A program made the translations under genes and the position numbers. The notes beneath the pieces are model-generated. The model searched no databases, was not told the DNA's origin, and saw only the letters and a list, made by a program, of their open reading frames with translations. From Halobacillus sp. Marseille-P3879 (GTDB taxonomy: Bacteria; Bacillota; Bacilli; Bacillales; Halobacillaceae): a stretch of 64,000 nt of DNA. This document shows, piece after piece, positions 25,096 through 29,933 of this stretch. The stretch lies in the NCBI RefSeq assembly GCF_900240285.1, contig NZ_OESS01000001.1:806001-870000 (forward strand), in the 5' to 3' direction. The stretch's first letter is position 1, and the number at the start of each line of letters is the position of its first letter.

Positions 25096-25190
25096 TGTCA
25101 TCACCGCTAGGGGAGCTTTATGCTGAGAGAAGAAATTTCGACCCTTTGAACCTGATCTAGTTTGTACTAGCGTAGGGAAGTGGAGTGAGT
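25096..25190 (+). promoter_or_regulatory. TPP (THI-box) riboswitch
   Basis: The conserved THI-element pieces are present in order: GGGGAGC (25110), GCTGAGAGA (25122), ACCCTTTGAACCTGATCTAG (25141) and ACTAGCGTAGGGAAG (25166). TCATCAC and GTGGAGTGA can close P1. It lies in the leader of the NCS2 permease operon with a terminator at 25236. When thiamine pyrophosphate binds, the terminator should form and switch the four genes off. Confidence 0.95.
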
Positions 25191-25235
25191 CTATTAGTTG
25201 TTGAATGTTCATTTTTTAAATTCTTCCTATATAGA

Positions 25236-25267
25236 AGTCACCCCACGATCTGGGGTGGCTTTTTTGT
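25236..25267 (+). terminator. Riboswitch expression-platform terminator
   Basis: CACCCCA and TGGGGTG pair around CGATC, with GCTTTTTTG after. It sits between the TPP aptamer and the ribosome site of the first gene, so it is the likely switched element. Confidence 0.88.
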
Positions 25268-25287
25268 ATGTGAGGAGGATTTTAGAA

Positions 25288-26610
25288 ATGAGACAAGAGG
25301 AAAAAAGTACATCTTTGACGGTGGGTGTTGAAGAAAAACTCTCACCGGCAAAAAGCTTTCTTTATGGTTTGCAGCACGTATTCGTTTCTAATGTTTGGCT
25401 TGATCCGATTTACGTGGCCGCTTTAATCGGTTTACCACTAGGGTTATCAGCAAATATGGTGAATGCTATCTTTATTGCTGCTGGTCTGGTCACACTTGTC
25501 CAGGCGACAAGGTTTGTCCGTTTGCCTGTGGTTCAAGGTCCGTCAGCAGCTTTTGATGCCTTAATGATCAGTGCGGGTAAATCACAGAATTTAGGAGCTG
25601 CAGGCGGCGCTATTATTGTAAGTGCATTGATTGTATTCTTACTGGCGATTACTGGTTTGTTAAGCAGGTTAAGGTCATTCTTTACCCCGGTAGTTACCGG
25701 GACAGTGATTTTTATTGTTGGGGTTGCGCTTTCTGGTTTCACTTTAGAGTTGTTTTTAGGAGGAGCACCTGGGTCAGAGACATTTCTAAACGGCGGCGTA
25801 CTCACGATGTCGATCACTTCAGCACTGATCGTTCTTTTGTTATCTGTATTTGGGAGAGGAAAACTGCGCTCTTTTTCATTTTTAATCGCTCTTGTTATTG
25901 GAGATCTTATCGGATTGCTATTTGGGTATATTAATTTTTCTACCGTAGCAGAAAGCAGTTGGTTTGGTTTACCACAATTTCTTCCCTATGGGGAGCTTAC
26001 GTTTGACTGGATTACATTCGGTGCATTCTTCTTCGCTTACCTTGTGGCGGTGATTGAAGCCATGGGGGTTTACCATGCAGCTGCTGAAATGGTTGACGTT
26101 AAATTAGATGATAGACGAATTCGCGGGGGATTTGCCGGCGAGTCTTTAGGGTCGCTGGCCTCTACGTTGATCGGGGGATTCCCCACTACAGCCTACGGAC
26201 AAAACGTAGGGTTATTGCGTTTAACGGGCGTAGGGTCGCGTCACGCTGTAAAAGTAGCCGCTCTTATTTTCCTTATCCTGGGTTTCGTGCCAAAAGCGGG
26301 GGCGTTGTTAGCTGTTACTCCCCACGCTGTGGTCGGAGGAATCTTTTTACCGGCAGCCGCATCCCTCATTTTCACGGGACTCAATATTTTAGGAGGGATG
26401 AAGAAAACAGACGCGAACTTTATGATCGCCGGTATCTCTATTTTACTGGCAATTGCCTTGCCAGACTTTTTTGAAGAGACGGAAGGCTGGCTGGGGGATT
26501 TGCTCGGTAACACTATTTTAGTCGGAGGTATATGTGCGGTTCTATTACAACTTATACTGGTTCAGTTTCCAGACTGGCTCAGTTTAAAAAAAGGAGTAGA
26601 AAAACAATGA
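25288..26610 (+). CDS. NCS2 (nucleobase:cation symporter-2) family permease under TPP control
   Basis: The 440-residue polytopic permease has about 12-14 spans. NCS2 features are GLQHVFVSNVWLDPIYVAAL near the start, VQGPSAAFDALM (the QGP region), AVIEAMGVYHA (the conserved helix 8 Glu) and GGFPTTAYGQNVGLLRLTGV. The family imports purines, pyrimidines or ascorbate. Because a TPP riboswitch leads the transcript, the substrate is probably a thiamine precursor resembling a pyrimidine. ATG 25288 was chosen for GTGAGGAGGA; an in-frame start at 25198 lies before the terminator hairpin. Stop overlaps the next ATG (ATGA). Confidence 0.88.
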   Translation: MRQEEKSTSLTVGVEEKLSPAKSFLYGLQHVFVSNVWLDPIYVAALIGLPLGLSANMVNAIFIAAGLVTLVQATRFVRLPVVQGPSAAFDALMISAGKSQNLGAAGGAIIVSALIVFLLAITGLLSRLRSFFTPVVTGTVIFIVGVALSGFTLELFLGGAPGSETFLNGGVLTMSITSALIVLLLSVFGRGKLRSFSFLIALVIGDLIGLLFGYINFSTVAESSWFGLPQFLPYGELTFDWITFGAFFFAYLVAVIEAMGVYHAAAEMVDVKLDDRRIRGGFAGESLGSLASTLIGGFPTTAYGQNVGLLRLTGVGSRHAVKVAALIFLILGFVPKAGALLAVTPHAVVGGIFLPAAASLIFTGLNILGGMKKTDANFMIAGISILLAIALPDFFEETEGWLGDLLGNTILVGGICAVLLQLILVQFPDWLSLKKGVEKQ

Positions 26611-27692
26611 GACAGCAGACGAAACAGATGATTGAGCAGCTTATTTCTTTTATTATATATCGACGATCGACAGATAAAGATTTTCAGGATTTGGCACTCT
26701 CCTTATTTTCTTATCAATTTGAATACAACCTTCCTTATAAAAAGTATTGTCAAAAAAGGAGAAAAACCCCCTTGACGGTCCAGCACTGGCAGGAGATCCC
26801 TGCCTTGCCGATCCAGGCATTTAAGGAACTACCTTTAACCTGTGAGTCAACCACAGAACCTGAGTCCGTGTTTTTGACTAGTGGAACGACAAATGTGGAG
26901 AAACGCGGGCAGAACATTCATCCTACTTTAGCCGTGTGGGATGTATCAATGATGACCGCTTTTAAACAATTTGTATTGCCGGATCAACAGACTGCGACCA
27001 TTTATGTGCTTTCTCCTGCGGAAGATTTGAATCAGCAGTCTTCTTTATCCCGTTATTTAACCAACGCAGTCAAGCATTTCGGCACAGAAGACAGCCGTTT
27101 CTTCTTTAAAGAAGAGGGACTTGAAATGGCGGCTTTAACTGCCGCTTTAAAAGAGAAGGAAAGCAAACGAGAACCTGTTTTACTGATGGGCGCCTCATCT
27201 GCTTATGTTCACTTTATAGACTATTGTATGGAGCGTGATCTTACCTTCCATCTCCCGGAAGGCAGTCGGATATTTGATACCGGCGGATTTAAAGGACAGT
27301 CTCGAGAGCTGACTCGTGAAGAAATGTATGAATCTTTTGCCAGGGTATTTGACGTTGATCCAAACAACTTTATTAACATGTACGGGATGACAGAATTAAG
27401 TTCCCAGATTTACGAAGTGACCGCCCAGTCTCCGAGATTCGAGAAGGTAAACCCGGATTGGGTAAAGACCCTCGTGCTGGATCCGGATACATTACGTCCC
27501 GTAAAAGCCGGGGAAATTGGTGTGCTGGCTCATTATGACTTAGCTAATTGGAATTCCTGTATGGCGGTCTTAACCGAGGATATTGGTTACGAAACAGAGA
27601 ATGGATTTGTACTACTAGGTCGAGTGGAGGGTTCAGAAGCACGCGGCTGCTCCATCGCAGTGGACGAGCTTATGAAGGCAAATGGAAAGTAG
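26607..27692 (+). CDS. LuxE-like acyl-protein synthetase (acid-activating subunit)
   Basis: The 361-residue member of the LuxE/PaaK-type adenylate-forming family activates a carboxylic acid with ATP and holds it as a thioester on its own cysteine. Seen: FLTSGTTNVEKRGQ (phosphate loop), RIFDTGGFKGQSRELTREE, NMYGMTELSSQIYE, and a C-terminal RGCSIAVDEL with Cys348, in the place of the LuxE acyl-acceptor Cys. ATG overlaps the permease stop by 4 nt with AAAGGAG before it. Next to a LuxC-like reductase, so the pair should turn an acid into an aldehyde. No luciferase genes are near. Confidence 0.88.
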   Translation: MRQQTKQMIEQLISFIIYRRSTDKDFQDLALSLFSYQFEYNLPYKKYCQKRRKTPLTVQHWQEIPALPIQAFKELPLTCESTTEPESVFLTSGTTNVEKRGQNIHPTLAVWDVSMMTAFKQFVLPDQQTATIYVLSPAEDLNQQSSLSRYLTNAVKHFGTEDSRFFFKEEGLEMAALTAALKEKESKREPVLLMGASSAYVHFIDYCMERDLTFHLPEGSRIFDTGGFKGQSRELTREEMYESFARVFDVDPNNFINMYGMTELSSQIYEVTAQSPRFEKVNPDWVKTLVLDPDTLRPVKAGEIGVLAHYDLANWNSCMAVLTEDIGYETENGFVLLGRVEGSEARGCSIAVDELMKANGK

Positions 27693-27701
27693 GGATCCTT
27701 A

Positions 27702-29153
27702 ATGAACAAAGAACAACAAGAGACTCAGGCATATTTCATTCCTGACACGATTCAATTGACGTCGTTTACTACGAGGGAATTTGAGTCGAAACAAGGGAAG
27801 TTAATTTTAAAATCTCCTACCCTTTCAGGAAAAGATATTCAATTCATTACAGACACCATAAAGGCTAATCAGAAAAATTATCTTGACAGGCTCCAGACTA
27901 CTGAAGTAATCGACATTGTGGACGCAGCGGTCCAGAAATGGCTGGATCCTGATTATCATTTGAGGAAATTTGCAGAGAAATGGCTGCCCGTGATTACAGG
28001 TTATGATGCAGAAATGATCCGGCTTGAATTAAAACGATTCCTGCGCACCTTTCGTAAACAAGAGCTGCTTCGTTTTTTAGTGGAGGAATTTGACGATCCA
28101 GCTGTACTCGATGATTTTCGTCCCAGAAAAAAAGGGGGTCTCAGCAAAGCCTATGGTCCCAATCTTATCTTGCACTTTTTTTCAGGGAACGTGCCAGGAC
28201 TCCCCGTTTGGAATTTGGTCATGGGGTTACTGATTAAGTCGGGACAGCTTGGCAAAACGTCTTCATCAGAGCCGCTCATGCCTGTATTATTTGCTAAGTC
28301 CCTGGAGGAAGTTAATCCTGAGCTGGCAAAGACATTAGCGGTGCTGCCGTGGAAAGGAGGAGAAGAACAGCTTGAGCAGCCAGCTATAAAAGCAGCCGAG
28401 GCTGTTGTGGCCTATGGCTCAAGTGACTCAGTAGAAAATATAAGGAAGCGGGTTCCTGCTCACAAGCGATTTTTAAGCTATGGTCATAAAATTAGTTTCG
28501 CAATGGTTGGTCAGGAAGCCCTGACAGTGGATCGCTATAGGGCCTCAATCCACAGGGTAGCTGAAGATGTTTCTGTCTATGATCAGCAAGGATGTGTATC
28601 TCCTCAAATCATTTATGTAGAACAAGGGGGAAGTGTGAGCCCGAGAGAATTTGCTCAGCTCTTAGCTAAAGAAATGGACCATTATAATCACAAAAAACCA
28701 AGAGGGCCCCTCCTTGAAAATGAAGCCTTAGCTATTCAGTCTTTTCGCAGCCAATATGAATTTCAAATGGAAAGTAGTGTGTACGGCCATCCTGCCGATA
28801 CAAGCTGGACAGTGGTCTATCATTCAGAACCTGGATTTGAACCTTCCCCTTTAAATCGGGCTGTCCATGTGTTTAGCTGTACACACTTAGAGCAGGTATA
28901 TCCTAAGTTGACGGCATTCTGTCAATATTTACAAACGGTTGGTGTGGCTGTTAGACCAAACCGGTTGTTTAAGCTATCTGAAGACCTGGGAAAAGCGGGA
29001 GTCAGCCGGGTTTGTTCCGTAGGGAAGATGGCGCAGGCCCCTGCTGGCTGGCACCATGACGGGGAATTCAATTTATTAAACCTCATTCGCTGGACAGATA
29101 TTGAAACCAGTGCTGAACGACACGCCGAACATTATGATGAAGATTCAGAATAA
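27702..29153 (+). CDS. LuxC-like acyl reductase (aldehyde-forming)
   Basis: The 483-residue protein belongs to the LuxC acyl-CoA reductase family, within the aldehyde dehydrogenase fold. Typical stretches are HFFSGNVPGLPVWNLVMGLL, LPWKGGEEQ, VVAYGSSDSVENIRKRVP and the catalytic DQQGCVSPQ with Cys298. It would accept the acyl group from the LuxE-like protein and reduce it with NAD(P)H to the aldehyde. The start at 27702 has only a weak site (AGGGATC), suggesting translation coupled to the gene before. The chain is as long as LuxC. Here the substrate is probably not a fatty acid, given the TPP riboswitch. Confidence 0.88.
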   Translation: MNKEQQETQAYFIPDTIQLTSFTTREFESKQGKLILKSPTLSGKDIQFITDTIKANQKNYLDRLQTTEVIDIVDAAVQKWLDPDYHLRKFAEKWLPVITGYDAEMIRLELKRFLRTFRKQELLRFLVEEFDDPAVLDDFRPRKKGGLSKAYGPNLILHFFSGNVPGLPVWNLVMGLLIKSGQLGKTSSSEPLMPVLFAKSLEEVNPELAKTLAVLPWKGGEEQLEQPAIKAAEAVVAYGSSDSVENIRKRVPAHKRFLSYGHKISFAMVGQEALTVDRYRASIHRVAEDVSVYDQQGCVSPQIIYVEQGGSVSPREFAQLLAKEMDHYNHKKPRGPLLENEALAIQSFRSQYEFQMESSVYGHPADTSWTVVYHSEPGFEPSPLNRAVHVFSCTHLEQVYPKLTAFCQYLQTVGVAVRPNRLFKLSEDLGKAGVSRVCSVGKMAQAPAGWHHDGEFNLLNLIRWTDIETSAERHAEHYDEDSE

Positions 29154-29165
29154 GGAGGTAAGAAA

Positions 29166-29933
29166 ATGGATTTGAAAGGAAAAATTGCATTAGTAACCGG
29201 GGCGAGCCGGGGGATTGGTGCTGAGATTGCAAAAGCTTTTGGAGAGGAAGGGGCATTCGTTATTGTTAATTACCTTCAAAATGAAGAAAAAGCAGAGACA
29301 GTTGTTGACCATATTAAAAATCAAGGCGGGGAATCCATAGCTTTGCAGGCAGATGTTACTGACGAGAAATCAGTCCAAGACCTGGTCGCAAAAGTAGTCG
29401 ATTCGTTTGGAGCCATTGACGTCGTCGTCAATAATGCATTGCCTTCTTATACATTCAACCCGAAAACGCGAAAAGCGGCGTGGGCCATGAAATGGGAAGA
29501 CTATCAGAAACAAATTGAAGGGAGTATAGGCGGAGCTTTCCATGTGTGTAAAGCGGTTATGCCTTATATGAAAGAACAAAATAGTGGACGAATTATCAAC
29601 TTACTAACGAACTTAATCGATCTTCCTCTAGTCCCTTACCACGACTATACGACAGCCAAAGCTGGGCTTCTCGGATACAGCCGCAACCTCGCAGCGGATC
29701 TTGGTCCATTTGGAATAACAGTGAATTGTGTAGCGCCGGGATTGACATACCCAACAGATTCAAGCATGGAAACAAAAGAAGACGTACGTGAGGAAATTGC
29801 TCGTCTTACGCCGATGGGGAAAGTCGCTTCACCAGAAGACATTACCGGAAGTGTCCTGTTTTTTGCTTCCGATTGGGCATCGTTTGTTACCGGGCAGTGT
29901 ATTCGTGTGGATGGCGGATTAGTAATGAAATAG
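29166..29933 (+). CDS. Short-chain dehydrogenase/reductase ending the TPP-controlled operon
   Basis: The 255-residue classical SDR has TGASRGIGAEIAKAF (cofactor loop), DVTDE, VNNALPS (NNA variant of NNAG), and the active-site YTTAK. The residue 13 before that tyrosine is Thr, not the usual Ser (INLLTNLID). It ends PGLTYPTDSS...VTGQCIRVDGG, like FabG-type enzymes. In this operon it could reduce the aldehyde made by the LuxC-like protein to an alcohol. AAGGAGG precedes the ATG, 12 nt after the reductase. A terminator at 30027 closes the operon. Confidence 0.85.
   Translation: MDLKGKIALVTGASRGIGAEIAKAFGEEGAFVIVNYLQNEEKAETVVDHIKNQGGESIALQADVTDEKSVQDLVAKVVDSFGAIDVVVNNALPSYTFNPKTRKAAWAMKWEDYQKQIEGSIGGAFHVCKAVMPYMKEQNSGRIINLLTNLIDLPLVPYHDYTTAKAGLLGYSRNLAADLGPFGITVNCVAPGLTYPTDSSMETKEDVREEIARLTPMGKVASPEDITGSVLFFASDWASFVTGQCIRVDGGLVMK

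What the first reader, a model, noticed from the sequence alone, without database searches (positions are those of the whole stretch)
25096..29933. TPP-riboswitch operon joining an NCS2 permease to a LuxE/LuxC/SDR carboxylate-reducing set
Seen: a complete THI-box with terminator, then four tightly packed genes (ATGA overlap, gaps of 9 and 12 nt): NCS2 permease, LuxE-like synthetase with RGCS acyl-acceptor Cys348, LuxC-like reductase with Cys298, and an SDR. Known: LuxE activates an acid and holds it as a thioester, LuxC reduces it to an aldehyde, SDRs reduce aldehydes to alcohols, NCS2 carries nucleobase-like rings, and TPP riboswitches govern thiamine genes. Inference: the operon imports a carboxylated thiamine fragment (for example the 5-carboxy form of the HMP pyrimidine, or thiazole acetic acid) and reduces it to the alcohol used for thiamine synthesis. 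I know of no described pathway of this form.
Basis: partly seen in the sequence, partly recalled or inferred. Interest (0 to 1): 0.88.

Follow-up and report, generated by a model that had tools for sequence, protein, structure and literature searches.

The report
Vitamin B1 fragment reduction-salvage operon
A gene set controlled by a vitamin B1 sensor appears to take in an oxidised (acid) fragment of the vitamin and reduce it back to a usable building block; related sets occur in several groups of bacteria, but the chemistry has not been tested.

Summary
Observation confirmed: a TPP riboswitch with terminator, then NCS2 permease, LuxE-like, LuxC-like and SDR genes, packed as described. The thiamine link is real. 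Of 48 loci examined with a LuxE relative at 41% identity or more (Bacillota, Bifidobacterium, Pantoea, Azospirillum, Pseudomonas), 47 have a TPP riboswitch upstream; the other starts at a contig edge. LuxC is in 48, SDR in 47. Twelve operons also hold thi genes: thiazole-half genes in all 12, thiD-thiE in 5, pyrimidine-specific ones in none. NCS2 (32 loci) is replaced in 9 by an ABC transporter with an NMT1/THI5-like binding protein. Best reading: import of a carboxylated thiamine fragment and its ATP/NAD(P)H-dependent reduction to the alcohol when TPP is low. I favour 4-amino-2-methylpyrimidine-5-carboxylate to HMP: four of 38 operon genomes lack the thiazole kinase ThiM, and seven of 28 lack ThiC but keep ThiG, none the reverse. 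Thiazole-5-acetate is a serious rival, since the operon often adjoins ThiM or ThiW. No substrate was tested; ten full-text searches showed no description of this route. New variant of thiamine-precursor salvage.

The parts
25099..25195 (+). TPP riboswitch aptamer (THI element)
   Evidence: RF00059, 71.8 bits, positions 1-105 of 105; aligned with 35 riboswitches upstream of relatives
25233..25263 (+). rho-independent terminator, probable expression platform of the riboswitch
   Evidence: 13-pair stem with T tail; z -5.2
25288..26610 (+). NCS2 (SLC23) permease, predicted importer of the acid
   Evidence: Pfam Xan_ur_permease 226 bits; NCBIfam NCS2_1 87.2 over its cut-off 40, xanthine permease model 325 under its cut-off 414; solved relatives SLC23A1, UapA, UraA
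26607..27692 (+). LuxE-like acid-activating enzyme (adenylation, then thioester on Cys348; role by homology)
   Evidence: Pfam LuxE 84.7 bits; Cys348 conserved; AF2 model mean pLDDT 85.7, loop 344-350 under 50; PaaK-type ligases, ClxA and EhpF among its structural matches
27702..29153 (+). LuxC-like acyl-thioester reductase (Cys298; role by homology)
   Evidence: Pfam LuxC 371 bits; Cys298 in 32 of 32; only solved sequence relative 7xc6_A
29166..29933 (+). SDR oxidoreductase, predicted aldehyde-to-alcohol step
   Evidence: adh_short 163 bits; NCBIfam PRK08642 310.8 over its cut-off 292

Best explanation
When TPP is low the riboswitch lets transcription run through its terminator into NCS2-LuxE-LuxC-SDR. 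The NCS2 permease imports an oxidised (carboxylated) thiamine fragment. The LuxE-like enzyme activates the acid with ATP and holds it as a thioester on Cys348, the LuxC-like enzyme (Cys298) reduces it with NAD(P)H to the aldehyde, and the SDR reduces the aldehyde to the alcohol, which enters thiamine synthesis. The acid is most likely 4-amino-2-methylpyrimidine-5-carboxylate and the product HMP, which ThiD phosphorylates and ThiE joins to the thiazole phosphate. Shown here: riboswitch, gene set, conserved cysteines, linkage to thi genes, co-occurrence. Inferred: direction of control and of the reactions, cofactors, transport, identity of the acid. I put the general scheme (some carboxylated thiamine fragment reduced for re-use) at about 0.8 and the pyrimidine version at about 0.5.
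For: (1) TPP riboswitch upstream in 47 of 48 loci with LuxE at 41% identity or more: 41 at Rfam gathering score, L088 at 49 bits, below it, five by a model built here from others. LuxC in 48 of 48, SDR in 47, the exception being a contig that ends inside LuxC. (2) In 12 of 48 the same run of genes (same strand, gaps under 600 nt) holds thi genes: NCS2-LuxE-LuxC-SDR-ThiM-ThiD-ThiE (L018, L039), ThiM-ThiD-ThiE-NCS2-LuxE-LuxC-SDR (L026, L044), ThiF-like-NCS2-LuxE-LuxC-SDR-ThiD-ThiE (L017). (3) Structural matches of LuxE include aromatic-acid adenylating enzymes: PaaK1 and PaaK2, ClxA with an aminohydroxybenzoate, EhpF. (4) For the pyrimidine: no ThiM in G253, G296, G229 and G014 although they carry the operon, so an HET product would be a dead end there. 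Of 28 operon genomes seven (one a metagenome draft) lack ThiC but keep ThiG, none the reverse, two lack both. In one genus the partner alternates between a thiazole-making set (G296: TenI-ThiO-ThiG-ThiF) and the thiazole kinase (G317: ThiM), as expected if the operon supplies the other half. NCS2 carries nucleobases, and the replacing ABC transporter has an NMT1/THI5-like binding protein, the family of the pyrimidine-binding protein 3ix1; thiazole importers listed in PMC6593275 are ThiW and ThiU (passage).
Against: No substrate, activity or phenotype was tested. Apart from ThiD and ThiE the operon neighbours are thiazole-half genes (ThiM 5, ThiW 4, ThiF/ThiG/TenI-ThiO-ThiG-ThiF 3 loci) and pyrimidine-specific genes (ThiC, TenA, YlmB, YkoEDC) are in 0 of 12, although in TPP loci of these genomes pyrimidine genes mostly cluster with each other; taken as like-with-like this favours the thiazole. 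In L023 NCS2 is lost and ThiW kept beside LuxE-LuxC-SDR. ThiC is commoner with the operon in the class sample (10 of 11 against 185 of 387, p 0.005, kinship not corrected), and three of the four ThiM-less genomes have ThiC, so the operon is mostly an extra route. The ABC binding proteins lack the DWTPN stretch of two ThiY-type proteins fetched here. Other LuxE structural matches are not aromatic-acid enzymes (2-hydroxyisobutyryl-CoA ligase). G014 is a metagenome draft in which ThiG was not found either; G229 is 95% complete.
Confidence: 0.5

Rival explanations
1. Same machine, other half: the operon imports 4-methylthiazole-5-acetate and reduces it to hydroxyethylthiazole (HET), which ThiM phosphorylates.
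For: ThiM directly follows SDR in L018, L039 and L125 and is in the operon in L026 and L044; ThiW, the thiazole ECF component, lies between riboswitch and operon in L021, L023, L030 and L085; a related SDR (48% identity) heads TPP-SDR-ThiM-ThiD-ThiE-ThiW in L046; ThiM is present in 27 of 28 operon genomes as a full-length match over 170 bits, 19 of 28 over the curated cut-off; PaaK structural matches act on an arylacetate.
Against: No ThiM in G253 and G296 (100% complete), G229 (95%) or the draft G014; in the class sample ThiM (E at most 1e-30) is no commoner with the operon (8 of 11 against 306 of 387, p 0.71); none of 28 operon genomes has lost ThiG while keeping ThiC.
Confidence: 0.27
2. 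The substrate is a whole-vitamin acid, thiamine acetic acid, reduced back to thiamine.
For: Thiamine acetic acid is a thiamine metabolite in the rat (title of Amos and Neal 1970, seen only in the reference list of PMC7575681); the best solved sequence match of the L088 binding protein, 4nmy, is by recall a thiamin-bound protein (for L090 it is 3qsl); it would need no ThiM.
Against: Five operons include ThiD and ThiE, which repair of whole thiamine does not need; NCS2 carriers handle small single molecules such as nucleobases.
Confidence: 0.08
3. A fatty-acid or unrelated-acid reductase that happens to be under thiamine control, or SDR and LuxC working in the oxidative direction to degrade thiamine fragments.
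For: Pfam and NCBI names come from the bioluminescence fatty acid reductase; the only solved sequence relatives found are LuxE and LuxC of 7xc6.
Against: NCBIfam LuxE and LuxC equivalog models are far from met (73 of 550 and 125 of 750 bits); TPP riboswitch in 47 of 48 loci and ThiD, ThiE, ThiM, ThiW or ThiG beside it in 12 do not suit lipid metabolism; a breakdown path would not be expected under a TPP riboswitch with terminator.
Confidence: 0.07

Closest known systems
HMP salvage routes: TenA-YlmB-ThiXYZ, YkoEDC, CytX
   Same: TPP-riboswitch-controlled uptake of a thiamine pyrimidine breakdown product feeding ThiD and ThiE
   Different: TenA, YlmB, YkoEDC were not found in the operon; the predicted chemistry is carboxylate reduction, not deformylation, hydrolysis or plain uptake; the importer is NCS2 in 32 of 48 loci and in 9 an ABC transporter only distantly like ThiXYZ
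Thiazole salvage: ThiW or ThiU with ThiM
   Same: TPP control, in 9 of 48 loci the same operon (ThiM 5, ThiW 4)
   Different: Adds activation and two-step reduction; ThiM not found in 4 of 38 operon genomes
Lux fatty acid reductase LuxC-LuxE (with LuxD)
   Same: LuxE and LuxC homologues in tandem, both cysteines kept
   Different: Equivalog models not met, TPP control, transporter and SDR in the operon, order LuxE-LuxC
EhpF-EhpG of griseoluteic acid (phenazine) synthesis (pathway by recall; EhpF structures 3hgv, 3hgu and 3l2k are listed as phenazine antibiotic biosynthesis protein)
   Same: An aromatic heterocyclic carboxylate activated by an ANL enzyme of this fold, then reduced towards hydroxymethyl
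   Different: Antibiotic synthesis, not vitamin salvage; no riboswitch or permease known to me

Membership tests
TPP riboswitch (RF00059) | Covariance-model score over the gathering threshold | tested here: met
   71.8 against 54.3 bits
LuxE acyl-protein synthetase (Pfam PF04443) | Pfam gathering score; C-terminal Cys (acyl acceptor by homology) | tested here: met
   84.7 against 24.9 bits; Cys348 in 31 of 32. That it takes the acyl group was not tested
Bioluminescence LuxE / LuxC (NCBIfam NF052244, NF052251) | Equivalog cut-offs 550 and 750 bits | tested here: not met
   73.4 and 125.4 bits
LuxC reductase (Pfam PF05893) | Pfam score and catalytic Cys | tested here: met
   371 against 21 bits; Cys298 in 32 of 32, aligned with 7xc6
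NCS2 permease | Pfam PF00860 and NCBIfam NCS2_1 cut-offs | tested here: met
   226 against 27, and 87.2 against 40 bits
PbuX xanthine permease (TIGR03173) | Cut-off 414 bits | tested here: not met
   325.4 bits
Thiazole (HET) salvage | ThiM present to use the product | tested here: inconclusive
   Not found in 4 of 38 operon genomes (G014, G229, G253, G296), found in 34 including the window's own; so met here, not in all carriers
Known HMP salvage systems | TenA, YlmB, YkoEDC or ThiXYZ in the operon | tested here: not met
   TenA, YlmB, YkoEDC and a ThiY-type reference in 0 of 48 operons by tblastn; 9 have a distantly ThiXYZ-like ABC transporter. CytX was not among the references
Reduction of a carboxylated thiamine fragment | Enzyme activity on a pyrimidine or thiazole acid | not testable with these tools
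   Needs purified enzymes

The most novel reading that the evidence does not exclude
A widespread reductive repair route for oxidised vitamin B1 fragments: under a TPP riboswitch, bacteria take up the carboxylic acid that oxidation of thiamine or HMP leaves behind and reduce it through an acyl-enzyme to the alcohol, a further way to obtain the pyrimidine half besides (by recall) ThiC, TenA/YlmB, direct HMP uptake and THI5. It recurs in Bacillota, Bifidobacterium and Pseudomonadota, sits on small Lactobacillaceae plasmids, and uses interchangeable importers.
Probability: 0.5. Interest if true: 0.85.

Novelty: new variant of a known kind. Interest (0 to 1): 0.72.

Why it matters
Oxidised thiamine fragments are usually counted as lost vitamin. 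If true, several soil, gut and food bacteria can win them back, which changes how B1 auxotrophy and cross-feeding are predicted: PMC6593275 (passages seen) found the thiazole transporter ThiW in only 64% of thiazole auxotrophs, and PMC5627462 (passages seen) suggests an unknown thiazole uptake. It would also give a new function to LuxE/LuxC-like proteins that databases name after fatty acids, and it makes the question directly testable with four genes.

Tried and rejected
Bifidobacterium as a test of ThiM dependence: 10 of 112 genomes of the genus sample carry the operon (an 11th hit at 19.8 bits dropped; the genomes of L034, L035, L036 and L038 are not among the sample's hits), but ThiM is nearly universal there (101 of 112 match at E 0.001, one of them, G135, weakly; none over the curated cut-off), so it cannot discriminate. 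HMP uptake as a test: ThiC-less operon genomes mostly also have TenA-YkoEDC or a ThiY-type ABC transporter, so NCS2 is not their only route. In the class sample (398 Bacilli) 22 genomes had a LuxE match; 11 weak ones (below 46 bits) were dropped as other LuxE families. Three Armatimonadota loci (L041-L043, 34-37%) have no TPP riboswitch and were left out of the 48. Of 27 plasmid records at 42% or more I fetched 10; of the 17 others at 23-26%, L095 sits in another cluster and L096 on an E. coli lux construct, both left out. L119 repeats L037 and was counted once. Fatty-acid and breakdown roles were considered and put low (rivals). Pocket analysis was not possible because no model coordinates are given. 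Literature: searches (20 of 117 papers listed; 30 of 189 listed) showed no paper on this operon; subscription journals are mostly not held.
Full report
What is there. The window (LuxE 90% identical to Halobacillus sp. A5) holds a full-length TPP riboswitch at 25099-25195 (71.8 bits), a terminator at 25233-25263, then four genes on the + strand with an ATGA overlap and gaps of 9 and 12 nt: an NCS2 permease, a LuxE-like enzyme, a LuxC-like reductase and an SDR. The genes up- and downstream (glycosyltransferase-like, LytR-like, cell-wall hydrolase-like; names by eye) show no link.

The same genome. It has seven TPP riboswitches. The other six precede ThiW-TenA-ThiD-ThiM-ThiE, ThiC, YlmB-TenA, YkoEDC, TenI-ThiO-ThiG-ThiF and ThiT. 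Ten of these genes were checked against NCBIfam: ThiW, TenA, ThiD, ThiM, ThiE, ThiC and ThiT pass their cut-offs, YlmB passes deacylase models, TenI scores best but below its cut-off, YkoE has no match; the other names are by eye, with ThiG later found at 78% or so in relatives. So the strain appears able to make thiamine itself and has known salvage routes; the operon in question is an additional TPP-controlled unit. Only 2 of 11 genomes of the genus, the own one included, have it.

Relatives. A pattern scan of one genome per species gave 31 loci; plasmid records gave 44 hits, 27 of them at 42% or more; a sample of 398 Bacilli genomes gave 11 strong hits (own included) and 11 weak ones. Strong hits are at 41% or more and 300 bits or more, weak ones below 46 bits, so this is a separate LuxE subfamily. 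I compared 48 loci: the window, 28, 10 of the 27 plasmid records, and 9 of the class sample after removing the repeat L119. Two of the plasmid loci (L086, L087) are identical in LuxE. LuxC is in 48, SDR in 47, NCS2 in 32, an ABC transporter in 9, neither in 7; of the 7 one contig ends early (L122) and one keeps apparent remnants of NCS2 (L023). A TPP riboswitch lies upstream in 47: 41 over gathering, one at 49 bits (L088), five by model R1. The exception, L017, starts at a contig edge. The LuxE tree (47 rows, L091 left out) has two well-supported sides, one with NCS2 (33 rows, including the NCS2 deletion) and one with ABC or no transporter (14 rows). Two Lactobacillaceae plasmids (10 and 21 kb) encode the same four proteins by accession.

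Partners. Twelve of 48 loci have thi genes in the same run, same strand and gaps under 600 nt: ThiM in 5, ThiW in 4, and in 3 a ThiF-like end (L017), ThiG about 490 nt downstream (L028; ThiH and ThiF follow) or TenI-ThiO-ThiG-ThiF (L120); ThiD and ThiE in 5. Pyrimidine-specific genes are in none; in L127 a YkoE gene is divergent. Two readings exist. Like-with-like: the operon is on the thiazole side. Complement: the operon supplies the pyrimidine and its partner the thiazole. The second is favoured by a pair in one genus: in G296 the partners are TenI-ThiO-ThiG-ThiF and no ThiM was found; in G317 (7% contamination) the partner is ThiM. L017 reads ThiF-like-NCS2-LuxE-LuxC-SDR-ThiD-ThiE in a draft genome in which ThiC, ThiM and ThiG were not found.

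Presence and absence. ThiM: 27 of 28 as full-length matches over 170 bits, 19 of 28 over the curated cut-off; in the class sample (E at most 1e-30) 8 of 11 operon genomes against 306 of 387 others. It is missing from G253, G296 and G229, confirmed with PF02110, where HET would be useless; all three have ThiC. Over both sets ThiM is missing from 4 of 38. ThiC: 19 of 28 and 10 of 11, against 185 of 387. ThiG over 300 bits: 26 of 28. ThiC absent with ThiG present: 7 of 28; the reverse: 0; both absent: 2. ThiG was not searched in the class sample.

Enzymes. The AF2 model of LuxE (mean pLDDT 85.7, Cys loop 344-350 under 50) matches best acyl-CoA ligase BT_0428, PaaK1 and PaaK2 with phenylacetyl adenylate, ClxA with 3-amino-4-hydroxybenzoate, 2-hydroxyisobutyryl-CoA ligase, and further down EhpF (first 50 rows); TM-scores are 0.58-0.64 over the query, and fold likeness does not fix the substrate. 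The only solved sequence relatives of LuxE and LuxC at E 1 are chains of 7xc6. Recalled: EhpF and its partner EhpG are thought to reduce a phenazine carboxylate, a near precedent for reducing a heteroaromatic acid.

Transport. NCS2 proteins carry nucleobases, urate or ascorbate (solved relatives SLC23A1, UapA, UraA). CytX is listed as an HMP importer (PMC6593275, passage) and is by recall of the nucleobase-carrier family NCS1. The replacing binding protein is NMT1/THI5-like (177 and 161 bits), with the pyrimidine-binding 3ix1 among its matches, but lacks the DWTPN stretch of two ThiY-type proteins fetched here, so its ligand may differ.

Verdict. Observation confirmed; thiamine role well supported; reduction of a carboxylated thiamine fragment is the best mechanism (about 0.8); pyrimidine acid about 0.5, thiazole acid about 0.27, thiamine acetic acid about 0.08. 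Papers: passages seen in PMC6593275 and PMC5627462, one reference-list passage in PMC7575681, otherwise search listings only.

Noticed in passing
L046:402-1163 (Mesobacillus) and L052:375-1196 (Peribacillus): A second SDR of the same family (48% and 46% identity to the window's) lies right behind its own TPP riboswitch, once heading SDR-ThiM-ThiD-ThiE-ThiW and once with no recognised thi gene behind it, so this SDR type may have a thiamine role without LuxE/LuxC.
   Followed up: partly
L069:144-1989 (Tuberibacillus genome G023): A TPP riboswitch precedes a cystine-type ABC binding protein and permease (below model cut-offs) in a genome where ThiC and ThiG were not found; possibly an unrecognised thiamine or precursor importer.
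   Followed up: partly
L086 and L087: The TPP-NCS2-LuxE-LuxC-SDR operon with the same protein accessions sits on a 10 kb Lactiplantibacillus plantarum plasmid and a 21 kb Levilactobacillus brevis plasmid, both from South Korea.
   Followed up: partly
L091:8001-11296 (Pseudomonas silvicola megaplasmid): The operon behind a TPP riboswitch lies in several frames in LuxE, LuxC and SDR, so it looks broken.
   Followed up: no
L040:8001-9043 (Pullulanibacillus camelliae): The LuxE gene lies in two frames, while NCS2, LuxC and SDR are whole; a frameshift or a sequencing error.
   Followed up: no
L023:7690-7935: NCS2 appears deleted, with apparent short remnants of both ends (by eye) between ThiW and LuxE, while LuxE-LuxC-SDR stay open.
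   Followed up: partly
L041-L043 (Armatimonadota): More distant LuxE-LuxC pairs (34-37% in LuxE) without TPP riboswitch or NCS2 nearby; perhaps a related reductase of other function.
   Followed up: no
L095 (Priestia megaterium plasmid): A LuxE-family gene beside a fatty acyl-AMP ligase, a carrier protein, an iron-sulfur scaffold protein and a cysteine desulfurase: another LuxE cluster of unknown role.
   Followed up: no
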